Source: Bacteroidales bacterium (GTDB taxonomy: Bacteria; Bacteroidota; Bacteroidia; Bacteroidales; WCHB1-69). Taken from it: DNA of 38,944 bases. The notes beneath the pieces were generated by a model that was not told where the DNA came from, made no database searches, and saw only the letters and a program-made list of their open reading frames with translations. Shown here piece after piece: positions 1-37,983 of the stretch (positions are counted from its first letter, which is position 1; each line of letters begins with the position of its first letter). The translations under genes were made by a program, and so were the position numbers. Where the stretch lies: assembly GCA_024682995.1 (NCBI GenBank), contig JAIKYR010000106.1:1-38944 (forward strand), written 5' to 3'.

Positions 1-545
1 GGCCGACTGGTACAGCGAAAGCATCAGGACTGCGGTGTCCGTGCAGGTGTTGGCATTGGTGCTATAATGGTAGTACGTACCCGACTGGTTGATCGTGCTA
101 TCGGCCAACGCCCAGTAGTATCCGGTGCCGCAGGTGTCCACTGTAGTTTCCGTGTAATTGCCGTGGTTGACGGTGAGGTGCAGGACTACCGTGCTGTCGC
201 ATCCGTGCGTCGTCTGCAGGTTCAGATAGTGGTCACCCGCCGTGCTAACATTGAAGCCGTTCTGGACATAGACCTCGCCCGCGCAAATTTGAGCCGAGAG
301 TTCCGTCATAGCCGACTGGTACAGGGCAAGTCTCAGGACGGTAGTGTCGGTGCAGGTGTTGGCATTGGTGCTGTAATAGTAGTACGTGCCAGAATTGGTA
401 ATCGTGCTATCAGCCAGAGCCCAGTAGTATTGGGTGCCGCAAGTGTCCACTGTGGTTTCCGTGTACATGCCGTGGTTGACGGTAAGGCGGAGAATAACCG
501 TGCTGTCGCAACCGTGGATAGTGGAGAGTTTAAAGTTGAGAGTTG
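1..545 (-). repeat. 309-bp (103-aa) direct tandem repeat encoding Cys-pair GCDS-type repeats, continuing off the window
   Basis: gccgactggtacag at 2 and at 311 (offset 309 nt) with extended similarity; protein …THGCDSTVVLHLTVNHGNYTETTVDTCGTGYYWALADSTI.QSGTYY.YSTNANTCTDT.VL.L.LYQSA. Confidence 0.8.
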
Positions 546-3500
546 AGAGGGAGGGTGTCTCGAGGCTGAATGTAGTGTCAATTTGCCCGTTGACGTAGTG
601 GTAGGGGAGCTCGTTTTCGCAAATAGAAAGATTCAACGAATTATAAACCGGTACACAGGTCATAATATTCTGAATCCAAGTCGCCTGCTTTCCATAGTAT
701 CCGTTATATCCATTCTCATCCGTAACATTCAGGGTTTGGATATTCAAAACATAATAACCGGTTTGATTCGTGTAGGGTGCCAAATGCAATTTATACGTCT
801 TGGAATCTATACGTTCCACTTGGAGGTTAGCATCCAACAAATTCGCACCATTGTTGCATTTCAAGCTCATATCCAGATAGTTGAATGTTGAATCCACAAT
901 GGGTTTGTTGAACACGACCGTCACTTCCGCCAACGGCGTGGTTACAATAGAGTCTGGCACATTCAAAATCGTATCCACCTCCAATGTCATTTCCCGCAGA
1001 CTGAACACTAAGGTATAAGTAGTAGGAAGGTCATTGCTGAGCGTATCCACAATATGTAGTCTGTTCTCGTAGATAGGATCCGCGCCAACAGGGAGGGTGA
1101 CGAAGCTCTGCCATACGTTGCTGAGCGGAATCGCCTGCTGGTCTCTATTACGGGTACAGCTGATGAGCTTGTACTGGCCGCGACCGGGATCCCAAGTCTG
1201 TTCGTAGTTCCAACCTATGCGAGACGGGTCCAGCGTAAGTTGCACAATCGTATCCACCGGAGTCACATAATGGTCAAAACCGATGCTGTCGGCGATAGCT
1301 ACGCCTGTGCGGCTGCCATTGGAGAAATACAAGCTATCCGGATAATTCCGAATATCAGCCACATCATCCACGAGGAAATCATTGATACCATCATCCAGAT
1401 TGCCGTAGGCATAGACGGTATGGATGAGCGGATGGATAGCGAGACTGCTTACCAAACTAAGGTCTGGATTACCAAAGCTATTATTGTGAATTACATGAGC
1501 ATCATAGGAGACAAAATGACCGAGCAACGTGCTGGTGAACCACCACTCTCCAACTCCCGTGCGTCCAGGCTCAATATTGCCAAACGGAATCTCCTTCAGA
1601 CCAAGTTGACGTTCATTACCGTTAAATGCAGCCCCGTACATGGCGAAATCGACGGCCAAACCCTTTTCATTGTCGATAATTTTCGGTTCAGCGGTTTCCA
1701 AAAGAACATTCTTGGCCGTTCCCGCCCCACGATTATGGATGATGACACCCAATTCCGCCGGAACGATGGGTTCTATGCGGTCTTCCGTGAGCGGGTCATC
1801 ACCAAGGATATCGCGTTGCATGAAGTAGTTGACGTAGAGGTCTGGACTCGGGTGCACCATGATGTCCACTGGATAGAGATTATACGTCATGAATTCGCCC
1901 GTGAACGGGTCGATAAAGCTGAAGGAGCCGCCGAAGGAATAGACTTTGGAGATTTCGGGAGCGGCCTGCTTGGTGGGGATGAACTGCACCACGATGCTTC
2001 CTGCATTTTGTGCGGCCAAAGCAGCGCTACCGTTTGTACCTGACATATTATTGTAAGACAGGAAATTGATTTGGAAAAGATTGGTGCAATCCACGCCGTT
2101 TTCATCTTTAATCACAAAGTTCACATCAATATCCTGCATCGGCTGGCTCTCGTGCCCGTTGTTAATGGTGAGCGTCCCCTCGAACGCCTCACGGGTCATG
2201 GTCATCTTCTGCGAGAATTGAACGGTGACGGAGGCGCAAACCGACGATGAACTCATTCCAGCAACAATTTGGTCTATTGTGGATTTTGCTTCGAAAAATA
2301 TTTCATCAAGACTATTATATCCTAAATTATGAATAATTTGATTTAAGCTATCCGATTGGGATAATAAGCTATCCATATATGTAATATTAATTGGCGATAA
2401 CGTCAAAGAAGAAATATCATCTATATAATAAACCGTCGAATCATTAGACACAATTGTATCAACTACATCCAAATACTTATTCCATCTATGGGCAAAATTT
2501 CGCACATCACTCTCTGATATTTCATATGCTGACATATCACGAACAAGATTATTAACATCGATACTTGTGAAATGACGCAAATTACCGATAATCGAATCAC
2601 TATGATCTAAAAGTTTCGGCGCATCCTCATATGTATTATATATTTCATCTGAAATGAGATGCATAAGAATACTCACATACGTATCCAAGACATCGCCAAC
2701 CAACTGAAGATGCTCGATTTCACTCTGTCCCACAAAACTATCTCGTGTTCTACTAATATCACGCGATGATCCATCAGAGTTCCTCAACCTGCACTTTAAA
2801 TATTTGCCAATTGATGCCAAACAAGTTTTATCCTCACGTGTATTTTTCATATACTTCATCCTAGAAGCATATTTGACAATCCTATACTTTTTCAATGGTC
2901 CGAGAGCCTTATTTGTGAGATATGTTGCAGAGGCTCCACCTTCTACAGTATAATTTGGATTCTCAGCAGCACCGATAATATCTCCAATTATTGGCAAACA
3001 TCGTTCATCTACTTCTATAAGTATTTCATCACATTTCACACAGGGTATATCATTACGAATCCGTATAGGATCGACAATCTTAGTATTTTCATTGCATACA
3101 TTTTCATGTTCATGTTTCCGAGGGGGGTCGAAACTCCCTGAAAAATTAGCTAAGCTAACTAAAGCACAAACATTTACCTTATATATTTTCTTTGTATTTG
3201 TTTTTTGCCATTTTTTATCTGGGCCACAAATATATGAGTATTTCATCCCAATTACTTTCCAACAAGCATCCGAATCTGTTTCTAAAGGATTATCAACATT
3301 CACCCATCGCATAGGTGGATTATGACGAACTTCCACTGGAATTACGAAAGTAGATAATGCTGGTATTGAATCCATCGTACTTATCAGTGGAGTAAGCGTA
3401 TGATTTGGTATCGTCGGAAAGAAGATTTCCACATCATTTGCTGTAATAAGTCCATAATTTGTAACAATCAAATCAAACACCATAGTTTCACCAACTTCCA

Positions 3501-6500
3501 ACTCTGGAATAATACGAGAGGTTTCCAATATCACCACCGGTTTCGGCACATGCGTCTCGAACACCACGTTCAAATCGTAGGTGTATTCGTCTTGGATTTC
3601 GGTGGGGACCACATCCCATGAGTAGGTGATGGCCTGGAATTGGATGAAGATATCCTGACGATTGGTGTCGCCCGCCGTGATGAGCAGGTTGCCCTGGTAT
3701 TCCTCGTGGCGCTCGGCACGGACAATAAGCTTATAATATCCTTCCGGCAGGTTATTCACCACAAAATGTCCGTTAGCATCCGTTACACCCGTAGCAACCG
3801 TCTCCAAAGAGTAATAGCCCTTCACCATGATATTAGCACCAGCCAAGTGCGGTCCATGCCCTCCATTGGTGTTCCATGTATATTCGTCTGTAACATCCAC
3901 CAACAAAGTGCCCGTGGAATCTGAAATGCCCGTAATGTCATACGGAATACTCACACCCTCGCCACGCTCGCAGTTAATCGCCAAATGCCCTGTATAACGA
4001 ACAAGCTCAGCACTATCTGCCGAAAGACGGATGGAGACGTAGGCGGAATCATGCACCGCCAACGATGGCAGCGTATCATTACCCACCACCGACATCCAAG
4101 GCACATCAGGTAGCGAGACGTAGATATTGCCCGTCGGGCCAGTGCCATTGTTATAAATCTTGAGATCCACCACCTTGCTCCTTCCACGGGTCATCGTGGT
4201 GATGAGTGAAGTAGGCGTAACATCCAAATCGGCACGCTGCGGCATACAGTAGTACCAAGCCATGAAATTCATGGCTGCACCCTCATCGCTGGCAGCGTTC
4301 AGAGGTACCTCCTCGTAATTGACACCCGTTGAGACTTGAGATCCGCTGACCACATACTGAAGATAGCCCGTTGCCATGCCCGCAATATTCAGCGGTTCAA
4401 ACTGCACCGAGCAGCCGTTGGGCAATGACACTGGCGTAACCCTTATATTGGTAAGCGGAATCTGACTGCGGTTTCGAACGGCAATCCTACCGGAATCCGG
4501 CTGGTCGATGGTCGGTTCCCACAATATCCAGTCCGAAGAGACTAACATCATACCCGGAATATTAAAGTCATCATGCACTTCCGTGCTATTACCACCTGCC
4601 CGACGTGAACCAACCGTATAATAGCCCGCCTCGGAATGTTGCGGGGTAAACATTACTGTAAACTGTCCATTGGCATCTGAGACGGCAGGGATGGTGCGGA
4701 CATAATCCATCACGCTCACATACACCTCCACCGCCAAACCTGCGACCGGTTCGTGGAGCGGATTGGTCACCCTTCCATGGATTGGAATCTGACTATCCAT
4801 CGCATACACATTGGAGTCCACGTATGTGGTAAAAGTAAGATAATCTGCAAGATGACCTTTTATCGTAAAGGTTCTCGCCAACGTGTCGCTATAGAAAGTC
4901 ATTTGTGCCGTGTACTCTCCCTGCGCCACAACAGGATGGAACGAGAGCTGCATCCGTCCGCCGTGCAGACTATCCCAAACAGTTGTGGAAACAAGCGTGA
5001 AAGCGGTAGAATCTGCACCCGTCAGCTGGTAGCTGATGGCGCTGTCCAAGGCATTGCCATTCACTTGGAAAAAGATGCTTCGTGCGGCATTAAGCTGCAC
5101 TTCTCCAAAATCTACTGGGTTGCTTGTATTGACCGTCAGGGTGGGTGTTACATTCAGTGTGAAGTGACGTGTTGTGCTAACGGAGGTGTCGCAATCGTTG
5201 TAAGCTGTCATAAACCACTGATATGCACCTCGGTTGGCCAAGGACGACAAGGAATAGGACGTACCACGAATACGGGAAGCCGTGGGCTGTTGCGGCTGGG
5301 ATTCTCCCGCCGGCCACACATAAAGGTCATAGTGGGAGGCGTTCTCCACCGCATCCCATGTGAAGCGCACCGGGTAATTGGTAATCGGATAGTTTTCCGT
5401 AGGTGTCATAACCGTAAAATCGCCCACCGTGGAAGGCAGAACCGTAAGGAACAGCGTGACTATGGAATCACACCCGTTTACCGTGGACAATGTAAAGGTC
5501 GTTGTGGACAGTGCCGGGGTTTCCAAACCAAAGACTGTATCTCCATACGTAAATGGCAGGTCATTTTCACAGATAGTAAGATATTCATTGGCTGTAACCG
5601 AATAATTAACTGTCAGATGCAGTGTAACTATAGAGTCGCAGCCATTTGCCAATGCAAACGATTGGGAATAATCGCCGCTTCGGGTGTAAGACTGGTCATT
5701 CCACGTGTAGCTATCGCAGGTCGTATCGGAAAACTCACCATATACGGTAGTGCAATACAGCACCGGCACGCTGTAGAAATCCGACTCGTAGCAACCCATA
5801 TCCACCGTGTCACGCTTGATACGCGCCGTACCGTCCAAGTCGAGGCTGTCGGTCACAAGGGCATTGTCGCCATGGTTCACACACACGGAGCCGTCCAGCA
5901 GATGCCAATCCACGTTAGCGGTCGTATCGCCTGCACCAGCCGTAAGAGATGGATTCACAAACATCGGCGGGTTGATGTCATTGAGAACAATAACGCTATC
6001 GCCTTCATGACCACCCTCGATAGCGGAGAAGGAACAGATGATGTCATTGGAAAGATTGTCAGCTGCGCCGTTCCTCTCGTTGCCCCATACGATAGAATTT
6101 TTAAGATATGTATAATTGTTGCCATTCACGCCCGATCCTCCGTTATTGGAAACATTGCGAACAACAGTCGTTTCAAAAACATGTCCACTGCCCGATATGC
6201 CTCCACCTGCCATGTTGGATGTGTTATTCGACACCAGAGAGTTTTTCACCTTGTCATTTCCATAACCCATACAGATTCCCCCACCGCTGTTGGACGAATA
6301 GTTTCCTATAATCTTGCATCGAATAACATTGGTGGGATCTACATCAAAAGCTACACCTGCCCGATAATAGCAGTACACACCACCACCATATCTGCCTGCT
6401 TCATTTCCTGATATAGAACAATCCATGATTGTGGAATTATAGGAAAAAACACCGCCACCAGATCCCGTCGCACTGTTACTTGTTATTTTACAGGACAAAA

Positions 6501-9500
6501 TTACGGCTTTATATGTGCAGTTCACGCCACCTCCATTGCCAGCCGTACAACCTGTAATAAGGCACTCTGATATTGTTCCCGCTGAAACATATACTCCTCC
6601 TCCTCCATTGGCATTGCAGCCCATTATTTCGCATTGGCTCAACACACCATTTTTCTGAAGATACACACCACCGCCGTTAGCGGATGTTTGACCATTTCGG
6701 ATTGTAAATCCGTCCCATTTCGTTTGTATATTAAATACACCTGGTTGGTTCAAAACACGCCGTGCATTCATACCATCCAAAATCGTAACATTGGCATCAA
6801 AATCACGCAACGACAAATCGAAATTCGTAGGCTCATTACCCGCAAAGCCGCCATACACATTCACGTCCTCAATCATTGTAAAGGCATTGGCTGCTGTCGT
6901 GTCCCCATAGTAGGTACCGGCAGCCACCCATACCATAGCTCCATACGACTGCGCCAATACTTGTGCCTCCTCAATGGAGGATATGGCATTCGCCCAGCTG
7001 TTACCCGAATGGGTACCCGCACCCGTAACCGTTACATAGATGATGCTGTCATACACCGTCATCGGCACACTGTAATAGTCCGACTCGTAGCAGCCCAAAT
7101 CCACCGTATCGCGCTTGATGCGCGTCGTGCCATCCAAGTCGAGGCTGTCCGTTACCAAGGTGTTGTTTCCGACATTAATACAAGGGGATCCTTGTTGCAA
7201 ATGCCAATCCACATTGACGGTAGAATCGTTTGCCCCAGCAGTGAGAGAGGGATTCACGAACAGAGGCTGGTTGATGTCATTGAGAACAATAACGCTATCG
7301 CCCTCGGATCCGTCCTCGATGGCGGAGTGCGAACAGGTAAGATTATAGTCGGAAAGATTGCTTGGAGTGCCATCTCCCGTCTGGTTGCCCCAGACAATGG
7401 AGTTAGTGAGCGTGACAGGTCCCCATGGAAGCAATCCACCAACACCATTTCCAGATCGGTTGTTTACAATTGTGGAATTGATTATGTTCCCACTCCCATG
7501 GACTCCGCCTCCCGCGTTATTTGAGGAATTATTTGCCAACAAACAGTTCCTGACTTGGGAAGATGTCATATTAACGGCACCGCCCTCCCTAACTGTAGAG
7601 TTGTTCGAGATTTCACAGGAAACTATAGTGGCTCCTTCCGCATATATTCCGCCGCCACCATAGTAATAATATACATTATTTGTGGTGGAATTTCCGGAAA
7701 TGACACAGTTCACCACAGTCGAATAAGTCATCGCCTGAATGCCGCCGCCCTTATACACGGCCGAGTTGTCTGAAACCCTGCAATCTCTGATTACAGAACC
7801 ATATCCCGCCACATAGGCACCGCCACCATAACTGGCGTGGTTGTTCACCAATTTGCAATGTGACAGATAGGATCTTGAGCGAAGGTAAGCACCGCCACCA
7901 TAACTGGAAATATTCCCGTTTTGGATGGTGAATCCATCCCAAGTCGTCTGGACTGTGAAAGCGGAAGATTGTAATAGCACACGCCGGCTGTGCTGCCCAT
8001 CCAAAACCGTTGCATTGGTTTCAACATCGCGGAGTGACACATCATAGTCGGAAGGCTCGTTACCAACAAAGCCTCCATAGACATTGACACCCTGCACCAT
8101 AGTAAAGGCATTTGTCGAAGCCGTATCGCCATAATAGGTTCCCGCAGCCACCCAGATGTCAGGAGTATGTCCAAAGACGGAAGCTATCCGGGATGCCGTA
8201 CTCAACGCATAGTTGAGATCATTGCAGGCGGTCGCCCAGCTATTTCCCTCACCCTGTCCTATCGTCGTAACATAAATGCGGGCAAAATCCTTGACCTCCG
8301 TGGTGAAATAGCGGTATGTCCATAAGCTGCTTGTGTCACCGCACACGGACCGCGCCCGAACGACATAGTCCGTGTTCTGCCTCAATCCCGTCAGCTGGCA
8401 CATCAACGAGTCAACAGGAATTGTCAGATATTCATCGGACGCTCTTTCCTTGTATTGCACCTCGACGCCATCGGCATTGGTTCCAGCTTGGACAAGGAGA
8501 GTGGCCGTGTTTTCCGTCACCCCCATTAGCGACAGCCCCGACAGGTCGCAGCCGCCGTTCTCACAAACACCCGGCAGAATGAGATTCATACGGTAAGTGG
8601 AAAGCGTTCCTGCAGTAGGATTCGCAGGGTCTATATCGCCGTTATAGGAATAAGTATGCAAGCTGCTTGACTGTTGCGTCCGATGAGTGCATAATCGCCT
8701 ACTAGTTCCGCCATCGGTTCCTGTATTATCATCGAAAGCGATGATAAGATTATCCACGCCGTTGTAGCGGAACGGCTTGTCCAACGGTACTGAAATCACT
8801 GGATTGTCAGAGGCGTATTTCAGGGTCAGATCCCCTGAATACAATAAGGTAAGGGAATCTGATGTAACAAATCCTGCATTGTCATCGAATGATGGTCTGT
8901 CTGTATGGCCCAAATAGATATCCACATTCCGCGTGAGAGTTGAACCGGAAGACATGCACCGATAGCGCAATTTCAAGGTGTCCAATATCCGTTCGCCCGC
9001 AATTTCAGAGGCCTGATAAATCTGCTGCGAATACGAATATGAAGATTGGAAACGGATTGGTATAATATGTCCGTTGGTTGTTGTTGACGTGTTGCCTATT
9101 GTGTCGGATGTTGTGGTTTCGCCCGTGCATTTGGTGGAAAAGAAGACCTCGGAGGTGTATTCGGTCGGGGTGACATCATCGCAGAGCGTCCGCATCCTGA
9201 TGGTATATATCGTCTGAGCCTGTAGCCCTGTGAGCACATAGTATTCTGGCTCATAGACCAGCACGGAAGTCCATTGATTTTCATCTTCCGACTTGTATGA
9301 GAACTCGTAGGCGTAAGGGGAATCGGGGTTGGGGTTCTGCCAGGTCAGCAAGGCGGAAGTGCCAGAGATGTCGCTCACAGCGAGATTTTGGGGCGTTGCG
9401 CAGAATGCTTCCCCATGAAACTCATAACATCCGATGTCTATCGTGTCGGCAAAGACACGCGGCATATCCGACAGATCCGTTTCCTGGATTTGAATGCCAT

Positions 9501-12500
9501 TGACACCCGCATTCACGAGAGCGGAATACTTGCAAAGACGATAATCCCCTGTTTGCGGCGAAACGAAGAAGGGATAGTTCACCCCGGCATCCAAACCACT
9601 GTTCTCCCCTGAGAGAACCATCACGCTGTCGTTTCCGCTTATGCCGCCCTCCACGGCGGAATGGATGGTCTGGCACGCTCCGTAGGATACATACAAATTG
9701 CTGGCATTCCCATTTGTGCGACGATTACCCCATAGAACGCTGTTAACCATCCTATAATCGCCATCCTGCATCCAAACACCCGCATAGTTATCCGCATTGT
9801 TGGACACCACCGTCGTGTTGAACAAGTCACCGTAACCACACACACCACCGCCATAATAAGCGCTGTTCTCTGCAATCAGGCTGTTTACAACCGTAGCATC
9901 AGACAAATATATACCGCCACCGTATGAATGATTATAATAACCGTCGCTTATTTCTTGGGCCGTATTATGCACAATTGTACAGTTCAACACGTTGGTAAAT
10001 GACGCATATACACCGCCGCCAGATCGGGAAGAAGACGTATTCGTCCTATTATCCACAATATCCGAATGATGGATAACCGCATGAGAGGCCCATACACCTC
10101 CCCCGCTGCCATACTTTTGGGTTTCATTATTTCGAATACGGCAAAAGGCAATTTCCGAACTGTCCGAAGAACTCCTCACGCAAACACCGCCGCCCCCATA
10201 GATTGTTCCTTGGTTGTTATACGGAACCGATGCGACATTATCCTGAACAAGGCAGTTGGCCAACCGGGCATTCGACAGCATATACACACCGCCGCCGGGC
10301 CCGTTTGCATAACCGTTCTGGATTGTAAACCCGTCCCAAGATGTCCTTGTGTTGAAATTTTCAGGCTGATACAGCACCCTTCTTGCATTCTGGCCGTCCA
10401 AGATGGTAGCATTCGTCTCAAAATCACGCAAGGAAAGGTCATAATTCGCCGGTTCATTTCCCGCAAAGCCACCGTACACATTCACACCATCATACATAGT
10501 AAAGGCATTCTCAGTATCAGATGCCGTATCGCCATAGTAGGTGCCTGCGGCCACCCACACCACCGCGTCATAAACGGAGGACAGCAGCTGTGCACCATTA
10601 ATGGACGACTTCGCGTTCTCCCAGCTGTTACCAGAAAAGTCACCTGCTCCTGTTTGTGTCACATAAACAATACCGGAATATTCTGTCAACGGAGTACTGA
10701 AGTAGTCTGATTCATAACATCCCAAATCCACAGTATCGCGTTTTATGCGCACCATTTCATCCAAATCCACACTATCCAGAACTGCTGCGTTATCACCCCG
10801 ATTGATACAAATAGAACCTTGCTGCAAATGCCAGTCCACATTTTCAGTACTGTCAGTCCAGCCGGCCGTGAGAGACGGATTGGCAAATTGAGGATGCTGG
10901 TTGTTATGCTCACTTAATAATATAACATCCTCTCTCTCAAAATCATCTTCAACGGCTGTATTTGAGTATAAGATATAATTTCCTTGGATATTGCTTATTG
11001 TCCCATCCTGTTTTCTATTTCCCCATACGATGCAATTCGTCATTGTATTTTTATACGATGAAGAGGAGGAAGAGAAATTCACACCAGCTCCCTCATACCC
11101 CGATGCATTGCGGACAATGGTTGAATTAACAATTTCAGAGCCCATATTGATGTTAACGCCACCGCCATAACTATTAGAAGTATTATTGGCTATCAAACAA
11201 TTGTTTACAAAACACTGACTATTCAAAAACAATCCACCACCAGAACCTTGAGTCATATTGTAAACCACCTCTGAATTTTCGATATTTATACAGGAAGCAT
11301 AAACACCCGCTCCGTGACAAGAATTGTAACTGTATGAATTATTGTTCTCCACCTTGTTGTTCTTTATTCTACACCGACGAATAACAGGTCTTGTTATAGG
11401 ATTAGTATTGGTAGAGCCTACGGCATAAATGCCACCCCCATATCTGACTTCAGTATTCCTCCAATCATCGCTATAAGGTGTTGTAGAAATGTTATTTTGG
11501 ACAAGGCAGTGGCATAGAACGGCATTATTACGCATAAACACACCTCCACCATTCCCGTTCACATAACCATTTTGAATCACAAATCCATCCCAAGTTGTTT
11601 TTGTGTTGAAATCACTCGGCTGGTACAGCACTCTCTTTCTATTCTGACCATCTAAAATAGTAGCGTTTGCTTCAAAATCACGCATCGACAAATCAAAGTT
11701 TGCAGATTCGTTACCTATGAAACCGCCATAGACATTTATGCCATCCATCATCGTGAAAGCATTTTCCGATGTTGAATCAACATCCCCGTAATATGTGCCA
11801 GAAGCCACCCATACCATAAGATTGTATGACTTCGCCAATGTCATAGCCATTCGCACTGACGACATGGCATTAGACCAACTGTTACCGGAACGATTGCCAG
11901 CTCCAGACTCCGTCACATAGACAACGCCATTATATTCCGTCAATGGAATGCTATAGTAGTCTGATTCATAACACCCCAAGTCCACCGTATCGCACTTGAT
12001 TCGTGCCGTTCCATCCAAATCAAGACTGTCAGACAAGGCTGTATTTAAGCCTCTGTTAATACAAACAGAATTTGACATCAGATGCCAATCCACATTTGCA
12101 GTAGTGTCAAACGCCCCCGCCGTAAGGGATGGGCGAACAAAATGAGGATACTGATTGTTGTATTCGCTTAAAAGAACAATATTATCCCTTTCATAATCGT
12201 CCTCTATGGCTGAATATAAACATTGTACATTGTCTCCTTGCACATTATTTGACAATCCGCTATTATCCTGGTTCCCCCATACAATGCAATTTACCAACTT
12301 GCCGGTTATACAAACACCTGCACCATTGCTGGCCGAAGCGTTTCGAACAATGGTTGTATTCGTCACATTACCATTCCCGGAGATACCGCTTCCTTCATTG
12401 TTTTTTGATGAATTGTTGGCAACCAAACAATTCTTCACCTGACTGCGTTCGTTTATGAGGATTCCACCACCATAAGCATTTGATCTATTTTTAAAGACCT

Positions 12501-15500
12501 CCGTATTTTTCACTTCACTGCCATATGCGTATATGCCTCCGCCCCCACCATAATAGTCCTCACTATAATAGTTGTATGCTACCACACAATGTTCAATATC
12601 CGTATAATAAGCATATATACCGGCCCCATTAGAAGATGACGTGTTGTTTTCAACCGTACAATATCGGATTTTAGCCTTTCGATTAGATGAACCCGATGCT
12701 GTAATTCCACCACCTTCATTATACCGAACAAGGCAGTTGCTCAATATTGTATTATCAGACATGGAAACCCCACCTCCAAATCCATTTTGAATAGTAAACC
12801 CATCCCAGATCGTCTCTCTAACTACTGTGTTATAATCATTTGGGCGATTTAAAACTTTGCGTTTGTTTTGTCCATCCAAAATAGTAGCGTTTACTTCACA
12901 ATCCCGCAAAGTCAAATCATATTCTGGAGATTCGTTACCGACGAAGCCGCCATAAACTTTTACTCCTTCAACCATGGAAAATGCATTTTCAGAATTGAGT
13001 GTCGTATCACCATAATAGGTGCCGGCGGCCACCCATACCACAGCATTATATGTCTGTGCAATAAGCTGCGCATGCGAAAAGGAAGCTGTGGCATTGGCCC
13101 AACAATTACCCGACCGTGTGCCAGCACCCGTCTGTGTCACATAGACGATGCCATTATATTCTGTCATCGGCACACTATAATAGTCCGACTCATAGCAACC
13201 CAAGTCCACCGTGTCACGTTTGATTCGCGCTATGCCAGCCAAATCCACACTATCAGTCACAAAAGAATTGTCTCCTCTATTTATAAAAATAGATGTGGGC
13301 GCCAAATGCCAATCCACATTTGCAGTACTATCAAAAACACCCGCACTCAGAGATGGATTCACAAAATTCACAACATTAGAACCATTTTCCAATAAAACCA
13401 TGTTTTCTCCTGAGAGACCTCCCTCAATGGCACAATGAGAACAAACAACCCTGTCTCCACTGCCTCTCAAATTATTGGATACACCATCTGTTTCATTGCC
13501 CCACACTATACAATTAGACATTCTGGCATATCCGGACAATCCCGCTCCCACATCCCTATATGCGGAAGAATTGCGGACTATGGTCGTATTGATAATTGTA
13601 TCATTATTGGCTTCAATCCCCCCTGCCGCTGCCTCGGTTGATGTATTATTTGCAATCTGACAATTTATAATCTTACAGTTGCTCGTACTCATTCCTCCAC
13701 CATAATATATTGACTTATTATGAGTCACTCTTGAAGATTCAATCAAAGCATAATGAGCACATATTCCAGCTCCGTTATATGATATATTATTTGAAACCGA
13801 ACACTGAACAATTTTTGCCTTATGGGAAGACGACCCATACGCATAAATTCCTCCACCACAATTCGACCCTTCTATTTCATTATTCCGAACAAGACAGTGT
13901 TTCAAGATAGAATTTCCACATAGGTAAACACCCCCACCGGCTTCATTTCTCACAAGACCGTTCTGGATTGTGAAACCGTCCCATACGGTTTCCACGCCAA
14001 AATCACTTTTCTGATACAAAACCCTACGTGTATTCTGCCCATCCAAAATTGTGGAATTCGTTTCAAAATCACGTAAAGACAAGTCATAGTTTTCAGGCTC
14101 ATTACCTGCAAAACCTCCATAAACATTTACGCCATTTATCATTGTGAATGCATTCAATGCTGCCGAATCTGTATTCCCAAAATAGGTACCCGCAGCTACC
14201 CAAACAACACATGATCGGGATTGGGCTAATGTAATGGCATCCTGCAATGAAGACATTGCATTATTCCAACTATCTCCCGAGCCCGTCCCCGAGCCTGTTG
14301 GCGTAACATATACGATTCCCTCAAAAGGATACGATTGAGTATTGGTGTATCCAGATTCATAACACCCCATATCTACAGTATCCACTTGTATTCTTGGCAT
14401 ATTATCCAAGTCTTTCAATCTACTGACAAGCATATTCTCACCCCTATTCACGCAAGGAGACCATTGCGTCAAATGCCAATCAACATTTGAAGTGGTATCC
14501 TCATACCCTGATATATTGGACGGATTCACAAAACAAGGATAGGTATTGTCATTGTTTATCACTATTGCATGAACCCCAACACTTTCTCCATCCATTGCAC
14601 AAGCATAACATTGTAGTCCGTTCCCATAAAAATTATCCAAGGAATCCCCTCGCATATTTCCCCATACAATACTATTTGAAATATTACTCGAACCATATTC
14701 ACCCACAGAAATACCAGCACCATTGCTTATAGCAGTATTCCGAACAATTGTGGTATTTATAATTTCAGATTCACGGCTAACGATTCCTCCTCCAGATTGT
14801 CCAGATGTGTTATTATTGATAAGACAGTTGCTCACTTTATCATGTGAAGAAGAAAAACCTCCTCCATCGTAAGAGGACGAATTATTACATATTACACAAT
14901 TTGATACATCTGTTAAATATGAGCTAATCCCCCCCCCATATCTTCCATGGTTATAACAAATTTTGCAATTCAGAATTTCATTTGCATCATAACAATACAC
15001 CCCACCACCGCTATTATTAGATGTGTTATACTGGATAATGCAATTACTTAAAGTTACTTTCCCATGCATTTCTGCACCACCTCCTTGATCTGCTACTCCA
15101 TTCTGCAGTGTAAAACCGTCAAAAACCATAGGATAATCTGGATTGTAAGAAGACACGTACAACACCTGCCTATTATGTAAACCATCTAAAACAGTGGCAT
15201 TTGTCTCGAAATCACGCAAAGACAAATCATAATTAGCAGGCTCATCCCCAGCAAAACCACCAAAAATATTGACAATCATGCTTTTACTCACCTTAAAGGC
15301 TGATGTTTTTGTTGTATCCCCAAAATAAGTGCCCGCAGCCACCCAAATACTCAAAGAATCCAACCCATATACCTGGTTAATAGCTTCTTGTAAATCCGTG
15401 AAGGCATTATTCCATGATGTGCCGTCATTACTTCCTGTTGCACCACTTTTGACATATACGACGCGCTCTGGCGATACAGGGATTTCTTTGATTTGAAGAT

Positions 15501-16836
15501 TACAAAATACAACCTGGCACAATCTCCCCTCATAAGAGAACTTGAATCTTATATTTGATTCACCCGTCAAACCACTTATATCTACGATAGCCGTTGTCGT
15601 TGTCCAGGAGTTGAAAGACCCATAAGAGCTCAATGTCCAAATGGGCGTACTCTCATACGTGGATCCGCCATCTTTACTCACATAAATCTTCAAATCCACA
15701 TAATTATAAGTAACATAATAGTCATTAGACTGGAAGTCAAAAGACATAAGTAAATTATTGCTGACTTGGCTGAAATCAAAAACGCAAGTTTCCAATTGTT
15801 CTATTTTATTATCATTACTCCCCAAACATGAAGCCCATTTACTAATTTTCGTCCATGTCTTATCCTGTTGTGAAATGAGATTCCAACAAACCGGCGGGAA
15901 CCAATCACCTTCAAACTGTTCCGAATATGGTACTACTTTGCGTTGGCTACAATCCACCCCACTACCCTTAACTGTAATGGTTTCTAACACTGTATCACTT
16001 GCCAGTGAAATCATGCTATTTGCATTGCTTACTGACGTAGGGACATATTTCACAAACAAGACACCATTTTCTCTTATGGTTACAGTATTTACAAAAGACA
16101 CACTATCAACAGAAACATAGAATGGCGCAGTAGTAGAAACTGTGATTGGAGATCTTAAATTATAACCTTTTACCATGATAGGCACTGTTCTTTCCCGAAA
16201 TAATGGCACTTGCCCGAAATCCAACATCTCAGAACTAACAGAAATGGACGGTTTCCTCACTTCCACATCATCCAATCCAAGCCAATATATGTTTGTGGCA
16301 CCTAAGTGTCGGAACGCAATGTAAACCGTTTGGCCTGCAAAGCTGCTTAAATCCACCACTTGCTCTTCCCAATCATTAAAAGCGGATTTTGTTAGCAACG
16401 GAGTAGTCGCTTCTAATTCTGTTACGTTATTTGAAGAGGCCACATAAACACTATAATTTTCTGCATAATAACTACTGGATTCTTGTCCTTTTATCCAAAA
16501 AGTGAGTACTGCTCCATCGGGAATATTTATCGCCGGGCTAATAAGCCAATTGTCGGGAGTAATCGTACCCACTCCATATACATAGGAGGACATGGAGGCA
16601 ATCATACCATCACCCGAATGAGCTGCAGAGGGGTTTTGCTGATAGCGAAAGGAGGCATCCCAATTATATCCATCATTGTTCGCATCCACAATAGTCCAAC
16701 CGGTAGGCAGGACACCGCTATCAAAACTCTCATGAAACAGCACCGCCTGCGCCTTCACACCCAACATCACACACCATACGAGAGCTACAGCCATTGCCAG
16801 TCGTTTCACACTTGTATTTACCATTACATTCTTCAT
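1..16836 (-). CDS. Giant secreted multidomain surface protein (beta-helix / choice-of-anchor Q-like modules, FN3, Ig/CARDB-like, Cys-pair GCDS repeats); 3' end truncated by window edge
   Basis: Minus-strand frame opens at ATG 16836 (MKNVMVNTSVKRLAMAVALVWCVMLGVKAQA, signal peptide) and reads in frame to position 1 (…LYQSA). 16836/3 = 5612 codons. Triplets read in register along the + lines show no tta/cta/tca in the stretches I checked and the translation stays coherent. Confidence 0.93.
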   Translation of the reverse strand, partial: MKNVMVNTSVKRLAMAVALVWCVMLGVKAQAVLFHESFDSGVLPTGWTIVDANNDGYNWDASFRYQQNPSAAHSGDGMIASMSSYVYGVGTITPDNWLISPAINIPDGAVLTFWIKGQESSSYYAENYSVYVASSNNVTELEATTPLLTKSAFNDWEEQVVDLSSFAGQTVYIAFRHLGATNIYWLGLDDVEVRKPSISVSSEMLDFGQVPLFRERTVPIMVKGYNLRSPITVSTTAPFYVSVDSVSFVNTVTIRENGVLFVKYVPTSVSNANSMISLASDTVLETITVKGSGVDCSQRKVVPYSEQFEGDWFPPVCWNLISQQDKTWTKISKWASCLGSNDNKIEQLETCVFDFSQVSNNLLMSFDFQSNDYYVTYNYVDLKIYVSKDGGSTYESTPIWTLSSYGSFNSWTTTTAIVDISGLTGESNIRFKFSYEGRLCQVVFCNLQIKEIPVSPERVVYVKSGATGSNDGTSWNNAFTDLQEAINQVYGLDSLSIWVAAGTYFGDTTKTSAFKVSKSMIVNIFGGFAGDEPANYDLSLRDFETNATVLDGLHNRQVLYVSSYNPDYPMVFDGFTLQNGVADQGGGAEMHGKVTLSNCIIQYNTSNNSGGGVYCYDANEILNCKICYNHGRYGGGISSYLTDVSNCVICNNSSSYDGGGFSSSHDKVSNCLINNNTSGQSGGGIVSRESEIINTTIVRNTAISNGAGISVGEYGSSNISNSIVWGNMRGDSLDNFYGNGLQCYACAMDGESVGVHAIVINNDNTYPCFVNPSNISGYEDTTSNVDWHLTQWSPCVNRGENMLVSRLKDLDNMPRIQVDTVDMGCYESGYTNTQSYPFEGIVYVTPTGSGTGSGDSWNNAMSSLQDAITLAQSRSCVVWVAAGTYFGNTDSAALNAFTMINGVNVYGGFAGNEPENYDLSLRDFETNSTILDGQNTRRVLYQKSDFGVETVWDGFTIQNGLVRNEAGGGVYLCGNSILKHCLVRNNEIEGSNCGGGIYAYGSSSHKAKIVQCSVSNNISYNGAGICAHYALIESSRVTHNKSIYYGGGMSTSNCKIINCQIANNTSTEAAAGGIEANNDTIINTTIVRNSSAYRDVGAGLSGYARMSNCIVWGNETDGVSNNLRGSGDRVVCSHCAIEGGLSGENMVLLENGSNVVNFVNPSLSAGVFDSTANVDWHLAPTSIFINRGDNSFVTDSVDLAGIARIKRDTVDLGCYESDYYSVPMTEYNGIVYVTQTGAGTRSGNCWANATASFSHAQLIAQTYNAVVWVAAGTYYGDTTLNSENAFSMVEGVKVYGGFVGNESPEYDLTLRDCEVNATILDGQNKRKVLNRPNDYNTVVRETIWDGFTIQNGFGGGVSMSDNTILSNCLVRYNEGGGITASGSSNRKAKIRYCTVENNTSSSNGAGIYAYYTDIEHCVVAYNYYSEDYYGGGGGIYAYGSEVKNTEVFKNRSNAYGGGILINERSQVKNCLVANNSSKNNEGSGISGNGNVTNTTIVRNASASNGAGVCITGKLVNCIVWGNQDNSGLSNNVQGDNVQCLYSAIEDDYERDNIVLLSEYNNQYPHFVRPSLTAGAFDTTANVDWHLMSNSVCINRGLNTALSDSLDLDGTARIKCDTVDLGCYESDYYSIPLTEYNGVVYVTESGAGNRSGNSWSNAMSSVRMAMTLAKSYNLMVWVASGTYYGDVDSTSENAFTMMDGINVYGGFIGNESANFDLSMRDFEANATILDGQNRKRVLYQPSDFNTKTTWDGFVIQNGYVNGNGGGVFMRNNAVLCHCLVQNNISTTPYSDDWRNTEVRYGGGIYAVGSTNTNPITRPVIRRCRIKNNKVENNNSYSYNSCHGAGVYASCINIENSEVVYNMTQGSGGGLFLNSQCFVNNCLIANNTSNSYGGGVNINMGSEIVNSTIVRNASGYEGAGVNFSSSSSSYKNTMTNCIVWGNRKQDGTISNIQGNYILYSNTAVEDDFEREDVILLSEHNNQHPQFANPSLTAGWTDSTENVDWHLQQGSICINRGDNAAVLDSVDLDEMVRIKRDTVDLGCYESDYFSTPLTEYSGIVYVTQTGAGDFSGNSWENAKSSINGAQLLSSVYDAVVWVAAGTYYGDTASDTENAFTMYDGVNVYGGFAGNEPANYDLSLRDFETNATILDGQNARRVLYQPENFNTRTSWDGFTIQNGYANGPGGGVYMLSNARLANCLVQDNVASVPYNNQGTIYGGGGVCVRSSSDSSEIAFCRIRNNETQKYGSGGGVWASHAVIHHSDIVDNRTNTSSSRSGGGVYASFTNVLNCTIVHNTAQEISDGYYNHSYGGGIYLSDATVVNSLIAENSAYYGGGVCGYGDLFNTTVVSNNADNYAGVWMQDGDYRMVNSVLWGNRRTNGNASNLYVSYGACQTIHSAVEGGISGNDSVMVLSGENSGLDAGVNYPFFVSPQTGDYRLCKYSALVNAGVNGIQIQETDLSDMPRVFADTIDIGCYEFHGEAFCATPQNLAVSDISGTSALLTWQNPNPDSPYAYEFSYKSEDENQWTSVLVYEPEYYVLTGLQAQTIYTIRMRTLCDDVTPTEYTSEVFFSTKCTGETTTSDTIGNTSTTTNGHIIPIRFQSSYSYSQQIYQASEIAGERILDTLKLRYRCMSSGSTLTRNVDIYLGHTDRPSFDDNAGFVTSDSLTLLYSGDLTLKYASDNPVISVPLDKPFRYNGVDNLIIAFDDNTGTDGGTSRRLCTHRTQQSSSLHTYSYNGDIDPANPTAGTLSTYRMNLILPGVCENGGCDLSGLSLMGVTENTATLLVQAGTNADGVEVQYKERASDEYLTIPVDSLMCQLTGLRQNTDYVVRARSVCGDTSSLWTYRYFTTEVKDFARIYVTTIGQGEGNSWATACNDLNYALSTASRIASVFGHTPDIWVAAGTYYGDTASTNAFTMVQGVNVYGGFVGNEPSDYDVSLRDVETNATVLDGQHSRRVLLQSSAFTVQTTWDGFTIQNGNISSYGGGAYLRSRSYLSHCKLVNNHASYGGGAYVAGYGSVIRDCRVSDNSAVYKGGGIQAMTYSTVVNCVISGNSTTNNVYYYYGGGGIYAEGATIVSCEISNNSTVREGGAVNMTSSQVRNCLLANNSSNNAGGGVHGSGNIINSTIVNNRSGNGVGGLLPWGPVTLTNSIVWGNQTGDGTPSNLSDYNLTCSHSAIEDGSEGDSVIVLNDINQPLFVNPSLTAGANDSTVNVDWHLQQGSPCINVGNNTLVTDSLDLDGTTRIKRDTVDLGCYESDYYSVPMTVYDSIIYVTVTGAGTHSGNSWANAISSIEEAQVLAQSYGAMVWVAAGTYYGDTTAANAFTMIEDVNVYGGFAGNEPTNFDLSLRDFDANVTILDGMNARRVLNQPGVFNIQTKWDGFTIRNGQTSANGGGVYLQKNGVLSQCEIMGCNANGGGGVYVSAGTISECLITGCTAGNGGGVNCTYKAVILSCKITSNSATGSGGGVFSYNSTIMDCSISGNEAGRYGGGVYCYYRAGVAFDVDPTNVIRCKIIGNYSSNSGGGICMGYGNDKVKNSLVSNNTSNMAGGGISGSGHVFETTVVRNVSNNGGSGVNGNNYTYLKNSIVWGNERNGAADNLSNDIICSFSAIEGGHEGDSVIVLNDINPPMFVNPSLTAGAGDTTANVDWHLLDGSVCVNHGDNALVTDSLDLDGTARIKRDTVDMGCYESDFYSVPVLYCTTVYGEFSDTTCDSYTWNDQSYTRSGDYSQSFALANGCDSIVTLHLTVNYSVTANEYLTICENDLPFTYGDTVFGLETPALSTTTFTLSTVNGCDSIVTLFLTVLPSTVGDFTVMTPTENYPITNYPVRFTWDAVENASHYDLYVWPAGESQPQQPTASRIRGTSYSLSSLANRGAYQWFMTAYNDCDTSVSTTRHFTLNVTPTLTVNTSNPVDFGEVQLNAARSIFFQVNGNALDSAISYQLTGADSTAFTLVSTTVWDSLHGGRMQLSFHPVVAQGEYTAQMTFYSDTLARTFTIKGHLADYLTFTTYVDSNVYAMDSQIPIHGRVTNPLHEPVAGLAVEVYVSVMDYVRTIPAVSDANGQFTVMFTPQHSEAGYYTVGSRRAGGNSTEVHDDFNIPGMMLVSSDWILWEPTIDQPDSGRIAVRNRSQIPLTNIRVTPVSLPNGCSVQFEPLNIAGMATGYLQYVVSGSQVSTGVNYEEVPLNAASDEGAAMNFMAWYYCMPQRADLDVTPTSLITTMTRGRSKVVDLKIYNNGTGPTGNIYVSLPDVPWMSVVGNDTLPSLAVHDSAYVSIRLSADSAELVRYTGHLAINCERGEGVSIPYDITGISDSTGTLLVDVTDEYTWNTNGGHGPHLAGANIMVKGYYSLETVATGVTDANGHFVVNNLPEGYYKLIVRAERHEEYQGNLLITAGDTNRQDIFIQFQAITYSWDVVPTEIQDEYTYDLNVVFETHVPKPVVILETSRIIPELEVGETMVFDLIVTNYGLITANDVEIFFPTIPNHTLTPLISTMDSIPALSTFVIPVEVRHNPPMRWVNVDNPLETDSDACWKVIGMKYSYICGPDKKWQKTNTKKIYKVNVCALVSLANFSGSFDPPRKHEHENVCNENTKIVDPIRIRNDIPCVKCDEILIEVDERCLPIIGDIIGAAENPNYTVEGGASATYLTNKALGPLKKYRIVKYASRMKYMKNTREDKTCLASIGKYLKCRLRNSDGSSRDISRTRDSFVGQSEIEHLQLVGDVLDTYVSILMHLISDEIYNTYEDAPKLLDHSDSIIGNLRHFTSIDVNNLVRDMSAYEISESDVRNFAHRWNKYLDVVDTIVSNDSTVYYIDDISSLTLSPINITYMDSLLSQSDSLNQIIHNLGYNSLDEIFFEAKSTIDQIVAGMSSSSVCASVTVQFSQKMTMTREAFEGTLTINNGHESQPMQDIDVNFVIKDENGVDCTNLFQINFLSYNNMSGTNGSAALAAQNAGSIVVQFIPTKQAAPEISKVYSFGGSFSFIDPFTGEFMTYNLYPVDIMVHPSPDLYVNYFMQRDILGDDPLTEDRIEPIVPAELGVIIHNRGAGTAKNVLLETAEPKIIDNEKGLAVDFAMYGAAFNGNERQLGLKEIPFGNIEPGRTGVGEWWFTSTLLGHFVSYDAHVIHNNSFGNPDLSLVSSLAIHPLIHTVYAYGNLDDGINDFLVDDVADIRNYPDSLYFSNGSRTGVAIADSIGFDHYVTPVDTIVQLTLDPSRIGWNYEQTWDPGRGQYKLISCTRNRDQQAIPLSNVWQSFVTLPVGADPIYENRLHIVDTLSNDLPTTYTLVFSLREMTLEVDTILNVPDSIVTTPLAEVTVVFNKPIVDSTFNYLDMSLKCNNGANLLDANLQVERIDSKTYKLHLAPYTNQTGYYVLNIQTLNVTDENGYNGYYGKQATWIQNIMTCVPVYNSLNLSICENELPYHYVNGQIDTTFSLETPSLSTLNFKLSTIHGCDSTVILRLTVNHGMYTETTVDTCGTQYYWALADSTITNSGTYYYYSTNANTCTDTTVLRLALYQSAMTELSAQICAGEVYVQNGFNVSTAGDHYLNLQTTHGCDSTVVLHLTVNHGNYTETTVDTCGTGYYWALADSTINQSGTYYHYSTNANTCTDTAVLMLSLYQSA
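5460..5780 (-). other. Cys-pair GCDS surface repeats (internal copies)
   Basis: DTTCDSYTWNDQSYTRSGDYSQSFALANGCDSIVTLHLTV … TLSTVNGCDSIVTLFLTV. Confidence 0.65.
5785..7053 (-). repeat. Beta-helix module G
   Basis: SIIYVTVTGAGTHSGNSWANAISSIEEAQ … VWVAAGTYYGDT … GGGV rungs … DMGCYES. Confidence 0.8.
7055..8283 (-). repeat. Beta-helix module F
   Basis: ARIYVTTIGQGEGNSWATACNDLNYAL … DIWVAAGTYYGD … GGGAY/GGGI rungs … DLGCYES. Confidence 0.8.
8300..9420 (-). other. Two FN3-like domains flanking a jelly-roll-like domain, interposed between beta-helix modules E and F
   Basis: CATPQNLAVSDISGTSALLTWQNPNPDSPYAYEFSYKSEDENQW…LTGLQAQTIYTIRMRTLC; SYSYSQQIYQASEIAGERILDTLKLRYRC…RNVDIYLGHTDRPSF…DNLIIAFDDNTG; LSLMGVTENTATLLVQAGTNADGVEVQYKE…LTGLRQNTDYVVRARSVC. 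Confidence 0.7.
9425..10677 (-). repeat. Beta-helix module E
   Basis: GIVYVTQTGAGDFSGNSWENAKSSINGAQLL … NATILDGQNARRVLYQ … GGGV rungs … DIGCYEF. Confidence 0.8.
10680..11934 (-). repeat. Beta-helix module D
   Basis: Same module architecture (GVVYVTESGAG…NSW, VWVASGTYYGD, YGGFIGNES, NATILDGQNRK, GGG rungs, CYES). Confidence 0.8.
11940..13155 (-). repeat. Beta-helix module C
   Basis: GIVYVTQTGAGTRSGNCWANATASF … VVWVAAGTYYGDT … GGFVGNESPEYDLTLRDCEVNATILDGQNKRKVL … rungs … CYES. Confidence 0.8.
13160..14326 (-). repeat. Beta-helix module B
   Basis: GIVYVTPTGSGTGSGDSWNNAMSSLQDAI … VWVAAGTYFG … VYGGFAGNEP … GGG rungs … CYES. Confidence 0.8.
14330..15468 (-). repeat. Beta-helix module A
   Basis: Starts VVYVKSGATGSNDGTSWNNAFTDLQEAINQ, contains repeated SNC.I..N.S...GGG rungs and SIVWGN, ends VDMGCYES. 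Confidence 0.8.
16240..16765 (-). other. N-terminal choice-of-anchor J / cleaved-adhesin-like domain
   Basis: Translation FHESFDSGVLPTGWTIVDANNDGYNWDASF…NWLISPAINIPDGAVLTFWIKGQ…VYIAFRHLGATNIYWLGLDDVEV is typical of this domain. Confidence 0.75.
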
Positions 16837-16907: not shown

Positions 16908-17312
16908 TTAATTTGCCCCGCACTGCGCGGTGTAGGTGAGTACCACTCCATCCTTTATTTTCTTGTTTTTCACCTTCTCGAAAAGCACATTGGCATCCGG
17001 ATCAAAAATGATGAACCAGCTACTGTGATGGGCCTTGTCGGGTTCGTGCCACACAAAACGCAACGTCATACCCTCCGTCACAGAGAGATGAACCGTCTCA
17101 CTATACACATTACCTTTATCCCTGTAAAACCGATAAAACGGTTCCTCCGCATCATCGGCATACACCTCCAACCAAACCGGATTCTCCACCTTATCCAATG
17201 CGGAACTGGCCCCGATGGCCAACATGATATCGCACTGCGGACGCATCGAAGACTGCGCCCACATCACCATACCCATCAAACATAAGAAAAACGAGAATAA
17301 AACCTTCCTCAT
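16908..17312 (-). CDS. Small secreted hypothetical protein
   Basis: 134 aa, signal peptide MRKVLFSFFLCLMGMVMWAQS; Bacteroidota-type promoter upstream; same strand and 71 nt upstream of the giant ORF. Confidence 0.8.
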   Translation of the reverse strand: MRKVLFSFFLCLMGMVMWAQSSMRPQCDIMLAIGASSALDKVENPVWLEVYADDAEEPFYRFYRDKGNVYSETVHLSVTEGMTLRFVWHEPDKAHHSSWFIIFDPDANVLFEKVKNKKIKDGVVLTYTAQCGAN

Positions 17313-27972: not shown

Positions 27973-28974
27973 TTATACCTTCATAGTCAATATTTTTTCT
28001 TCATCTATCCCTACGATTTTGGCGACCACAGCTGGCTTCATGCCGTTAATCAGCATATTCCGTATAAGCAAGCTACGCTCCTCAATTCGACCTTCTTCCT
28101 TTCCTTTTTCCATTCCCTTTTCCATTCCCTTTTCCATGCCCTTTTCTATCCCTTTCTCCATCCCTTTTTCCAGCCCCTCTTTCAATCCCATTTTCATCCC
28201 CATTTTCATCCCCATTTTCATCCCCATTTCCTTTCCTTCTTCCATTCCTTGCTTCAAGCCTACTTTTATCCATGTGGCCTCCACGCTGACAGCATCCCAA
28301 TATTTGTCATAGATGTAACGTTCTGCATCGCTGTAGTTGATAACCTCCAATAGATCGATGGCCTTGGCAATGTCGCAATCGGCAAGCAAATCAGAAGGCG
28401 GAAAGCGAGTTTCTTCCTGCATCTCTGTGAAAAATCGCATCCATAATTCCCTTTTGGAGGTTCCTTTGTTCTGTATCTTTTGGAACTTCTCCATCTCAAC
28501 AAATACAATTTTAAGCCCTTCAAGTACCCTGTCAGTATGATATTCATGGACGATGCGATAAGGATGATACCATTCCTCAATATCTGGATGGCTATTTCCA
28601 TTGACGAAATTCAAAGAATATACAGGTTGTAATAAATCATACGTGCCACCCTTCTGAAGTTGATTCACATAAGCTTTTGAGGTGTTGAAAAGAACCCGCT
28701 GGTAAAAGCTTTCCGCCCAATTGAGCTGCATCTCCACAAGAAACTGGGAACCGGAAGAATCCTCGCAACAGACATCCACAATACTATTCTTGCGAGCAGG
28801 TGTCTCGGGCATGAGCTCGGCTGAGATGTAGTGTAGGGAGGTTATGGTTCGTCCGCCTTCTAACGGTAGAAAAGCATTGAGAAGACTCGTAGCCAAGTCA
28901 ATGTGTTGTCCAAAGATTTTACGAAACGTAACATCGGTGATGGGACTATAATATTTAATAGGACCTCTGATCAT
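27973..28974 (-). CDS. Rpn family recombination-promoting nuclease / PD-(D/E)XK nuclease family putative transposase
   Basis: SPITDVTFRKIFGQ, IVDVCCEDSSGSQFLVEMQL, YVNQLQKGGTYDLLQPVYSLNFVN; C-terminal GMEKG repeats. Confidence 0.88.
   Translation of the reverse strand: MIRGPIKYYSPITDVTFRKIFGQHIDLATSLLNAFLPLEGGRTITSLHYISAELMPETPARKNSIVDVCCEDSSGSQFLVEMQLNWAESFYQRVLFNTSKAYVNQLQKGGTYDLLQPVYSLNFVNGNSHPDIEEWYHPYRIVHEYHTDRVLEGLKIVFVEMEKFQKIQNKGTSKRELWMRFFTEMQEETRFPPSDLLADCDIAKAIDLLEVINYSDAERYIYDKYWDAVSVEATWIKVGLKQGMEEGKEMGMKMGMKMGMKMGLKEGLEKGMEKGIEKGMEKGMEKGMEKGKEEGRIEERSLLIRNMLINGMKPAVVAKIVGIDEEKILTMKV
28088..28240 (-). repeat. Degenerate 12-bp tandem repeat coding MGMK/GMEKG tracts
   Basis: Repeating cccttttccatt and cccattttcatc units on + strand; protein MGMKMGMKMGMKMGLKEGLEKGMEKGIEKGMEKGMEKGMEKGKEEG. 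Confidence 0.9.
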
Positions 28975-33134: not shown

Positions 33135-33147
33135 AATCGGATTATAT

Positions 33148-36633: not shown

Positions 36634-36840
36634 GGGCGGAAAAACACAACATTAGCACCCAATGATCAATTTGAGTTTAGATAAAAAAACAAAGCCAACG
36701 GCCAATAGCTAACAGCCAACACCTTTAACTCCTTAGTTCCTTAACTTCTTAACTATAAAGCCAACGGCCAATAGCTAATGGCTAAATTCCAACCCCCAAA
36801 TCCCAACACCCTCACATCAACAACCAAACCCCAAAAAAAC

Positions 36841-37872: not shown

Positions 37873-37983
37873 CATATACAACTTCTTAACTCCAAACCCA
37901 AAAGCCAACGGCTAATAGCTAACGGCTAAATCCCAAAGCCCAATTCCCAACCCCCTCACATCAACAACCAAACACCCAAACAC

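What the first reader, a model, noticed from the sequence alone, without database searches (positions are those of the whole stretch)
1..16836. Giant (at least 5,612 aa) secreted modular protein absent from the ORF track
The minus frame starting at ATG 16836 stays open to base 1. The track appears to list only ORFs with a stop inside the window, so it shows dozens of short antisense/out-of-frame ORFs here instead. The real product is a very large signal-peptide-bearing protein with beta-helix, FN3-like, Ig/CARDB-like and GCDS-repeat regions, consistent with a surface adhesin or T9SS cargo. Its C-terminus, including any sorting domain, lies outside the window.
Basis: partly seen in the sequence, partly recalled or inferred. 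Interest (0 to 1): 0.7.

Follow-up and report, generated by a model that had tools for sequence, protein, structure and literature searches.

The report
Giant surface protein with exchangeable cassette
A gut-type Bacteroidales bacterium encodes a secreted surface protein of about 6,025 amino acids whose middle holds an unnamed two-part module, found in several bacterial phyla, around a segment that relatives differ in completely and sometimes swap, and that in distant relatives is occupied by toxin-system parts.

Summary
The minus frame from ATG 16836 runs 5,612 codons to base 1 without a stop. The window is a whole contig. Its first 97 bases are identical to the end of contig C157 of the same genome, inside a 103-aa tandem repeat. 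Joining them gives a 6,025-aa (656 kDa) protein ending in a T9SS type A sorting domain; the T9SS translocon gene sprA is present.

The surprise lies at aa 3990-5279: an Ig-like module (A, 512 aa), a 360-aa segment, and a 418-aa module (B). B has no usable Pfam, NCBIfam or PDB match, yet at least 159 relatives were found, mostly Bacteroidota, plus about 9% of a Verrucomicrobiota sample and plasmids of Nostoc, Methylomonas and Eleftheria. A and B are conserved; the segment between them is hypervariable. In Flavobacterium it has been exchanged between species (flanks 93-94% identical, segment 15-42%; AU p about 1e-29). In distant relatives A and B are separate genes, with RHS repeats or Hint domains after A. 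I read it as a surface scaffold with an internal exchangeable cassette. Whether the cassette binds or harms targets is open; no immunity gene was found.

The parts
16747..16836 (-). N-terminal signal peptide (aa 1-30), MKNVMVNTSVKRLAMAVALVWCVMLGVKAQ
   Evidence: by sequence form; no SignalP available
16258..16737 (-). Cleaved_Adhesin / choice-of-anchor J domain (aa 34-193)
   Evidence: PF07675 5.7e-27, NF038128 2e-29
9418..15462 (-). Beta-helix units 1-5 (aa 459-828, 840-1217, 1230-1625, 1638-2043, 2056-2473), each ending in a choice-of-anchor Q segment GCYES/F
   Evidence: PF13229 and NF041518; unit borders; units 66-75% identical in DNA over aligned stretches
9175..9396 (-). FN3 domain (aa 2481-2554); a second FN3 lies near aa 2770-2845
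   Evidence: PF00041 2.7e-13, two stretches; the second one's position is approximate
5782..8283 (-). Beta-helix units 6-7 (aa 2852-3252, 3265-3685)
   Evidence: NF041518, two stretches
5437..5754 (-). First two GCDS repeats (aa 3695-3800)
3334..4869 (-). Module A (aa 3990-4501): string of Ig-like sandwiches including a CarboxypepD_reg domain (about 3649-3852)
   Evidence: conserved in the sister genomes and in other phyla; AF2 pLDDT 88; PF13620
2254..3333 (-). Variable cassette (aa 4502-4861): Cys-containing start, then a helical region
   Evidence: no Pfam hit; no relative in 61 near genomes; helices in AF2; differs between relatives
1000..2253 (-). Module B (aa 4862-5279): unnamed beta-sandwich module, signature SVCASVT..MTREAFEGTL..YFMQRDILGDD..WWFTSTLLGHF
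   Evidence: no Pfam, only noise-level NCBIfam hits, no PDB relative; 159 relatives; AF2 pLDDT above 90 over most of it
1..654 (-). C-terminal GCDS tandem repeat (103-aa period) running off the contig; bases 1-97 are shared with contig C157
   Evidence: continues on C157 12005-13246 to a TIGR04183 sorting domain

Best explanation
The gene encodes a giant T9SS type A cargo protein of about 6,025 aa that is exported by Sec and T9SS and displayed on the cell surface. Shown by sequence: signal peptide form, T9SS sorting domain, T9SS translocon gene in the genome. The N-terminal two thirds (Cleaved_Adhesin, seven beta-helix units, FN3) form a long stalk or binding array (inferred). Near the C-terminus sits a conserved scaffold of two modules, A and B, that bracket a variable cassette. 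In relatives the cassette is exchanged as a unit between otherwise closely similar proteins (shown in Flavobacterium), replaced by an alpha/beta-hydrolase, or lost. Because a T9SS cargo needs its C-terminus for the sorting signal, the variable part lies inside the chain instead of at its end, and A and B hold it in a constant frame (inferred). The cassette is most likely the specificity-bearing or effector-bearing head of a contact-dependent surface protein, diversified by recombination; what it binds or does is not known.
For: Open frame and join. T9SS. A and B conserved, segment not: same-genus pair window/G028 A 82%, cassette 24-33%, B 92%. Cassette exchange: F. tistrianum/F. anhuiense A 94%, cassette 42% overall and 15-17% in its core, B 93%, with fourfold-site identity 74/40/79%. 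The flank tree and the cassette tree reject each other's grouping (AU p 1e-76 and 3e-29). In L080/L082 the cassette is younger than the flanks (fourfold 81% against 62%). Hydrolase cassette PGAP1 2.6e-11 and 2.6e-13 in two sister genomes; cassette all but lost in L044/L046. The window's cassette has no relative in 61 near genomes. Split relatives carry RHS repeats or Hint domains between A and B.
Against: For the window/G028 pair itself fourfold sites are only 52% identical in the flanks, so rapid divergence of the segment cannot be told from replacement there; exchange is shown in Flavobacterium only. No immunity gene follows the fused genes, and the usual helical cassette keeps common motifs (Cys pairs, RWNxT) in most members, which may point to a structural role. 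The clades tested were chosen after seeing the alignments. Nothing tests surface display or binding.
Confidence: 0.55

Rival explanations
1. The A-cassette-B unit is a polymorphic effector system: the cassette is a toxin or effector delivered on contact, with A and B as its presenting shell. The fused T9SS form and the split RHS/Hint form are two versions of one system.
For: RHS repeats directly after A in Methylomonas and in two Verrucomicrobiota-sample loci, an RHS gene plus an ankyrin gene between A and B in Eleftheria; Hint domains after A in six loci; hydrolase cassettes; cassette exchange.
Against: No immunity gene next to fused genes; the helical cassettes match no toxin family; the Hint-type genes end 20-30 aa after the Hint domain, with no toxin behind it.
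Confidence: 0.25
2. An ordinary giant adhesin. The middle segment is a fast-evolving, possibly antigenic loop of a structural domain, without a function of its own.
For: Beta-helix, Cleaved_Adhesin and FN3 content; common motifs in most helical cassettes; most pairs show graded divergence.
Against: Wholesale replacement with sharp edges at conserved flanks, tree conflict, a complete enzyme domain in the same place, and the domain-free 86-87-aa version.
Confidence: 0.3
3. A polysaccharide-binding or degrading surface protein of a gut Bacteroidales, with the beta-helix units as carbohydrate-active modules.
For: Seven right-handed beta-helix units with choice-of-anchor Q ends.
Against: No carbohydrate-active catalytic family at Pfam or NCBIfam cut-off.
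Confidence: 0.15

Closest known systems
T9SS type A cargo proteins (TIGR04183)
   Same: Signal peptide form, C-terminal sorting domain, T9SS present
   Different: Far larger than most; carries the A/B module pair
TANFOR polymorphic toxins of Bacteroidetes (PMC7073777)
   Same: Large secreted Bacteroidota proteins with a variable part, proposed T9SS link, FN3 domains
   Different: No TIGR02542 match here; in TANFOR proteins the variable domain is C-terminal, here it is internal
RHS and HINT polymorphic toxins (PMC3482391)
   Same: RHS, Hint, transglutaminase, ankyrin and GHSxG-hydrolase parts occur at the cassette position in relatives
   Different: The window protein has none of them; the cassette is flanked on both sides; no immunity gene seen
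SprB gliding adhesin of Flavobacterium johnsoniae
   Same: Giant repetitive T9SS surface protein (size from general knowledge)
   Different: [quoted passage not shown] this one has a type A CTD; SprB was not compared by sequence here
Giant CASH/RHS protein of Ca. Menyafoubacter (PMC12057145)
   Same: About 6,000 aa, signal peptide, beta-helix repeats and RHS-like parts, in a PVC-superphylum lineage
   Different: Not compared by sequence here; may be a relative of the split form

Membership tests
T9SS type A cargo | C-terminal TIGR04183 sorting domain | tested here: met
   32.5 bits, cut-off 23, on the joined C157 piece; PF18962 17.0 bits, below its cut-off of 27
T9SS type A cargo | N-terminal Sec signal peptide | tested here: met
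   sequence form only
T9SS type A cargo | T9SS machinery in the genome | tested here: met
   SprA 2,457 bits on C97; 112 sorting-domain hits
T9SS type A cargo | Secretion abolished without CTD or T9SS | not testable with these tools
   needs genetics
Polymorphic toxins | Variable toxin domain at the C-terminus | tested here: not met
   the variable segment is internal, aa 4502-4861 of 6,025
Polymorphic toxins | Exchange of the variable domain by recombination | tested here: inconclusive
   met in Flavobacterium relatives; near saturation in the window's own pairs
Polymorphic toxins | Cognate immunity gene downstream | tested here: not met
   downstream genes of fused members are mostly unrelated to each other or on the other strand; here an OMP barrel follows
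Polymorphic toxins | Toxic activity of the variable domain | not testable with these tools
   no known toxin family matched
TANFOR toxins | N-terminal TIGR02542 domain | tested here: not met
   not among NCBIfam matches
RHS toxins | RHS repeats | tested here: not met
   none in the window protein; present in split relatives
SprB-like gliding adhesins | Type B CTD | tested here: not met
   the CTD matches the type A model TIGR04183
Choice-of-anchor Q beta-helix proteins | NF041518 domain at the ends of beta-helix units | tested here: met
   above cut-off in three protein pieces covering seven units

The most novel reading that the evidence does not exclude
A cross-phylum class of contact-dependent effector proteins in which the payload is internal and bracketed by two conserved modules: fused into one T9SS cargo in Bacteroidota, where the C-terminus must stay free for sorting, and split into an A gene with RHS or Hint payload plus a B gene with its own signal peptide elsewhere.
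Probability: 0.25. Interest if true: 0.8.

Novelty: new variant of a known kind. Interest (0 to 1): 0.6.

Why it matters
Modules A and B define an uncatalogued family in at least four phyla, in open frames of up to 9,641 codons, that general domain libraries miss. It links giant T9SS surface proteins with RHS/Hint toxin loci through shared flanks, and shows an exchangeable segment inside a chain instead of at its end. If the cassette proves to be an effector or a specificity domain, it would bear directly on the open question of whether T9SS takes part in competition between bacteria (raised for TANFOR proteins in PMC7073777).

Tried and rejected
Flank B in viral contigs and phages: none, so not a phage module. 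Sequence search of A and B in PDB: nothing. Foldseek of insert+B: only generic Ig-like strings, query TM at most 0.13; A: generic Ig strings such as ciliary ASH, titin, alpha-2-macroglobulin, TM about 0.2 with rmsd above 15 A, not taken as homology. First idea that every genome carries its own unrelated insert: rejected, since most inserts are variants of one Cys-containing helical type. Immunity gene next to fused genes: looked for, not found. Literature searches for a published name of the module: none found. L064, titled Verrucomicrobia, is a short Bacteroidota-like contig, probably misbinned; the same MAG's C466 copy and the genomes carry the Verrucomicrobiota claim.

Full report
OBSERVATION. 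The minus frame from ATG 16836 to base 1 is open for 5,612 codons. The other frames of the same stretch have 129-430 stops. The window is the complete contig C57 of a 2.59-Mb, 181-contig genome. Contig C157 ends in 97 bases identical to window bases 1-97, the kind of overlap that an assembly graph leaves at a repeat; here it is a 103-aa GCDS repeat. Across this overlap the frame continues for 413 aa to a stop, giving 6,025 aa and 656 kDa. The C157 piece is 48% identical to the C-terminus of a complete sister gene in G032, and both are followed by homologous outer-membrane-barrel genes (weak barrel matches). The number of GCDS repeats may be larger than assembled.

DOMAINS. Signal peptide form, Cleaved_Adhesin, seven beta-helix units with choice-of-anchor Q ends, two FN3, GCDS repeats, Ig-like string with a CarboxypepD_reg domain, GCDS repeats, T9SS type A sorting domain. 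SprA is present, and 112 sorting-domain hits show that this genome exports many such proteins, several of them from open frames above 3,000 codons.

THE UNUSUAL PART. Residues 3990-5279 match almost no library. In the genus the region occurs in 4 of 37 genomes, and in the relatives the match breaks in two: A and B are 70-85% identical there while the middle does not align. The middle is a 360-aa segment in the window, a different 373-aa one in G028, and about 825 aa with a PGAP1-like alpha/beta-hydrolase (motif GHSMGG) in G032 and G020. Only G000 itself carries the window's segment among 61 near genomes.

SPREAD. Module B in genome contigs: 159 relatives, the best 79 loci almost all Bacteroidota, including rumen Bacteroidales, Prolixibacteraceae, Flavobacterium, Saprospiraceae and Prevotella. 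An even draw of 396 genomes of the phylum had only two besides the window (narrow four-row profile), so it is patchy. In 291 genomes of the phylum of a MAG titled Verrucomicrobia, 25 have it, with frames of up to 9,641 codons. Plasmids: Nostoc, two Methylomonas, Eleftheria. Viral contigs and phages: none. None of 61 insert+B members hits Pfam at E 0.01, and NCBIfam gives only noise.

VARIABILITY. Among 169 pairs with B at least 80% identical, cassette identity ranges from 13 to 100%. Clear cases of replacement: F. tistrianum against F. anhuiense, flanks 93-94%, cassette core 15-17% with sharp edges; L114/L115, A 98%, B 97%, cassette 61%. Trees of flanks and cassettes conflict strongly in Flavobacterium (AU p 1e-76 and 3e-29). 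Those clades were named after inspection, and long branches are present, but the F. tistrianum cassette groups with F. hydatis and strain ALJ2 at full support. For the window's own pairs synonymous sites are near saturation (52%), so exchange there is inferred by analogy.

SPLIT RELATIVES. In Methylomonas module A is followed in the same chain by 15 RHS repeats, then rhodanese and transglutaminase genes, then a gene that starts with B. In Eleftheria: A gene, RHS gene, ankyrin gene, B gene. In the Verrucomicrobiota sample: six loci with a Hint domain after A (weak but consistent Hint-clan matches, mostly below cut-off) and two with RHS after A; the B gene follows with its own signal-peptide-like start. 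Fused forms there keep 343-549-aa segments; the ten scanned have no Pfam match, nor has the Nostoc one.

STRUCTURE. AF2 of insert+B: pLDDT 78 overall, above 90 over most of B; the insert has a low-confidence start and then helices. A: pLDDT 88, a string of beta-sandwiches. No informative PDB match.

INTERPRETATION. A giant T9SS-exported surface protein with an internal exchangeable cassette held between two conserved modules. Shown: the frame, the sorting domain, conservation and spread of A and B, variability, exchange in Flavobacterium, RHS/Hint parts at the same place in split relatives. Inferred: surface display, stalk role of the beta-helices, cassette as specificity or effector head, and the argument that the T9SS signal forces the variable part inside the chain. 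It is not filed as a polymorphic toxin: the C-terminal toxin and immunity-gene features were tested and not met.

Noticed in passing
window 36757-36872 and 37901-38015: Two stretches of about 116 bp, 90.5% identical, carry the leader and signal peptide start (MKKQTLFLALL...) of two otherwise different secreted proteins (36778-37872, a T9SS cargo, and 37984-38736): a duplicated signal-peptide module.
   Followed up: no
window 27973-28974: A 333-aa protein whose C-terminal part is a run of MGMKMGMKMGLKEGLEKGMEKG-type repeats, resembling PD-(D/E)XK transposase-family proteins (by eye).
   Followed up: no
window 31833-34233: Two adjacent related secreted glucosaminidase/LysM-type genes in tandem (by eye).
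   Followed up: no
G540:C1:4681447-4742531: Three B-module giant genes close together (open frames 9,446, 9,641 and 5,476 codons) and a fourth elsewhere on the same 5.7-Mb contig in one Verrucomicrobiota-sample genome.
   Followed up: partly
L067, L071, L073, L077, L079, L080, L070, L098, L107, L108: A large same-strand gene upstream of the chassis gene, LRR or BspA-like by eye in Flavobacteriia and Prevotella, suggesting a two-gene unit; the window has a small 134-aa secreted protein there instead (16908-17312).
   Followed up: partly
L163:5401-6630 and L094: Further cassette kinds: a beta-rich looking segment (L163) and an array of CNYNPSANCDD-type Cys repeats before the helical part (L094).
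   Followed up: no
L150:9351-14237: The tip behind the RHS core contains YYLEFQSGKIYIGKG, which looks like a GIY-YIG/URI nuclease motif (by eye).
   Followed up: no
G000, many contigs: 112 T9SS sorting-domain hits, open frames up to 5,494 codons besides this one: heavy investment in giant exported proteins.
   Followed up: partly
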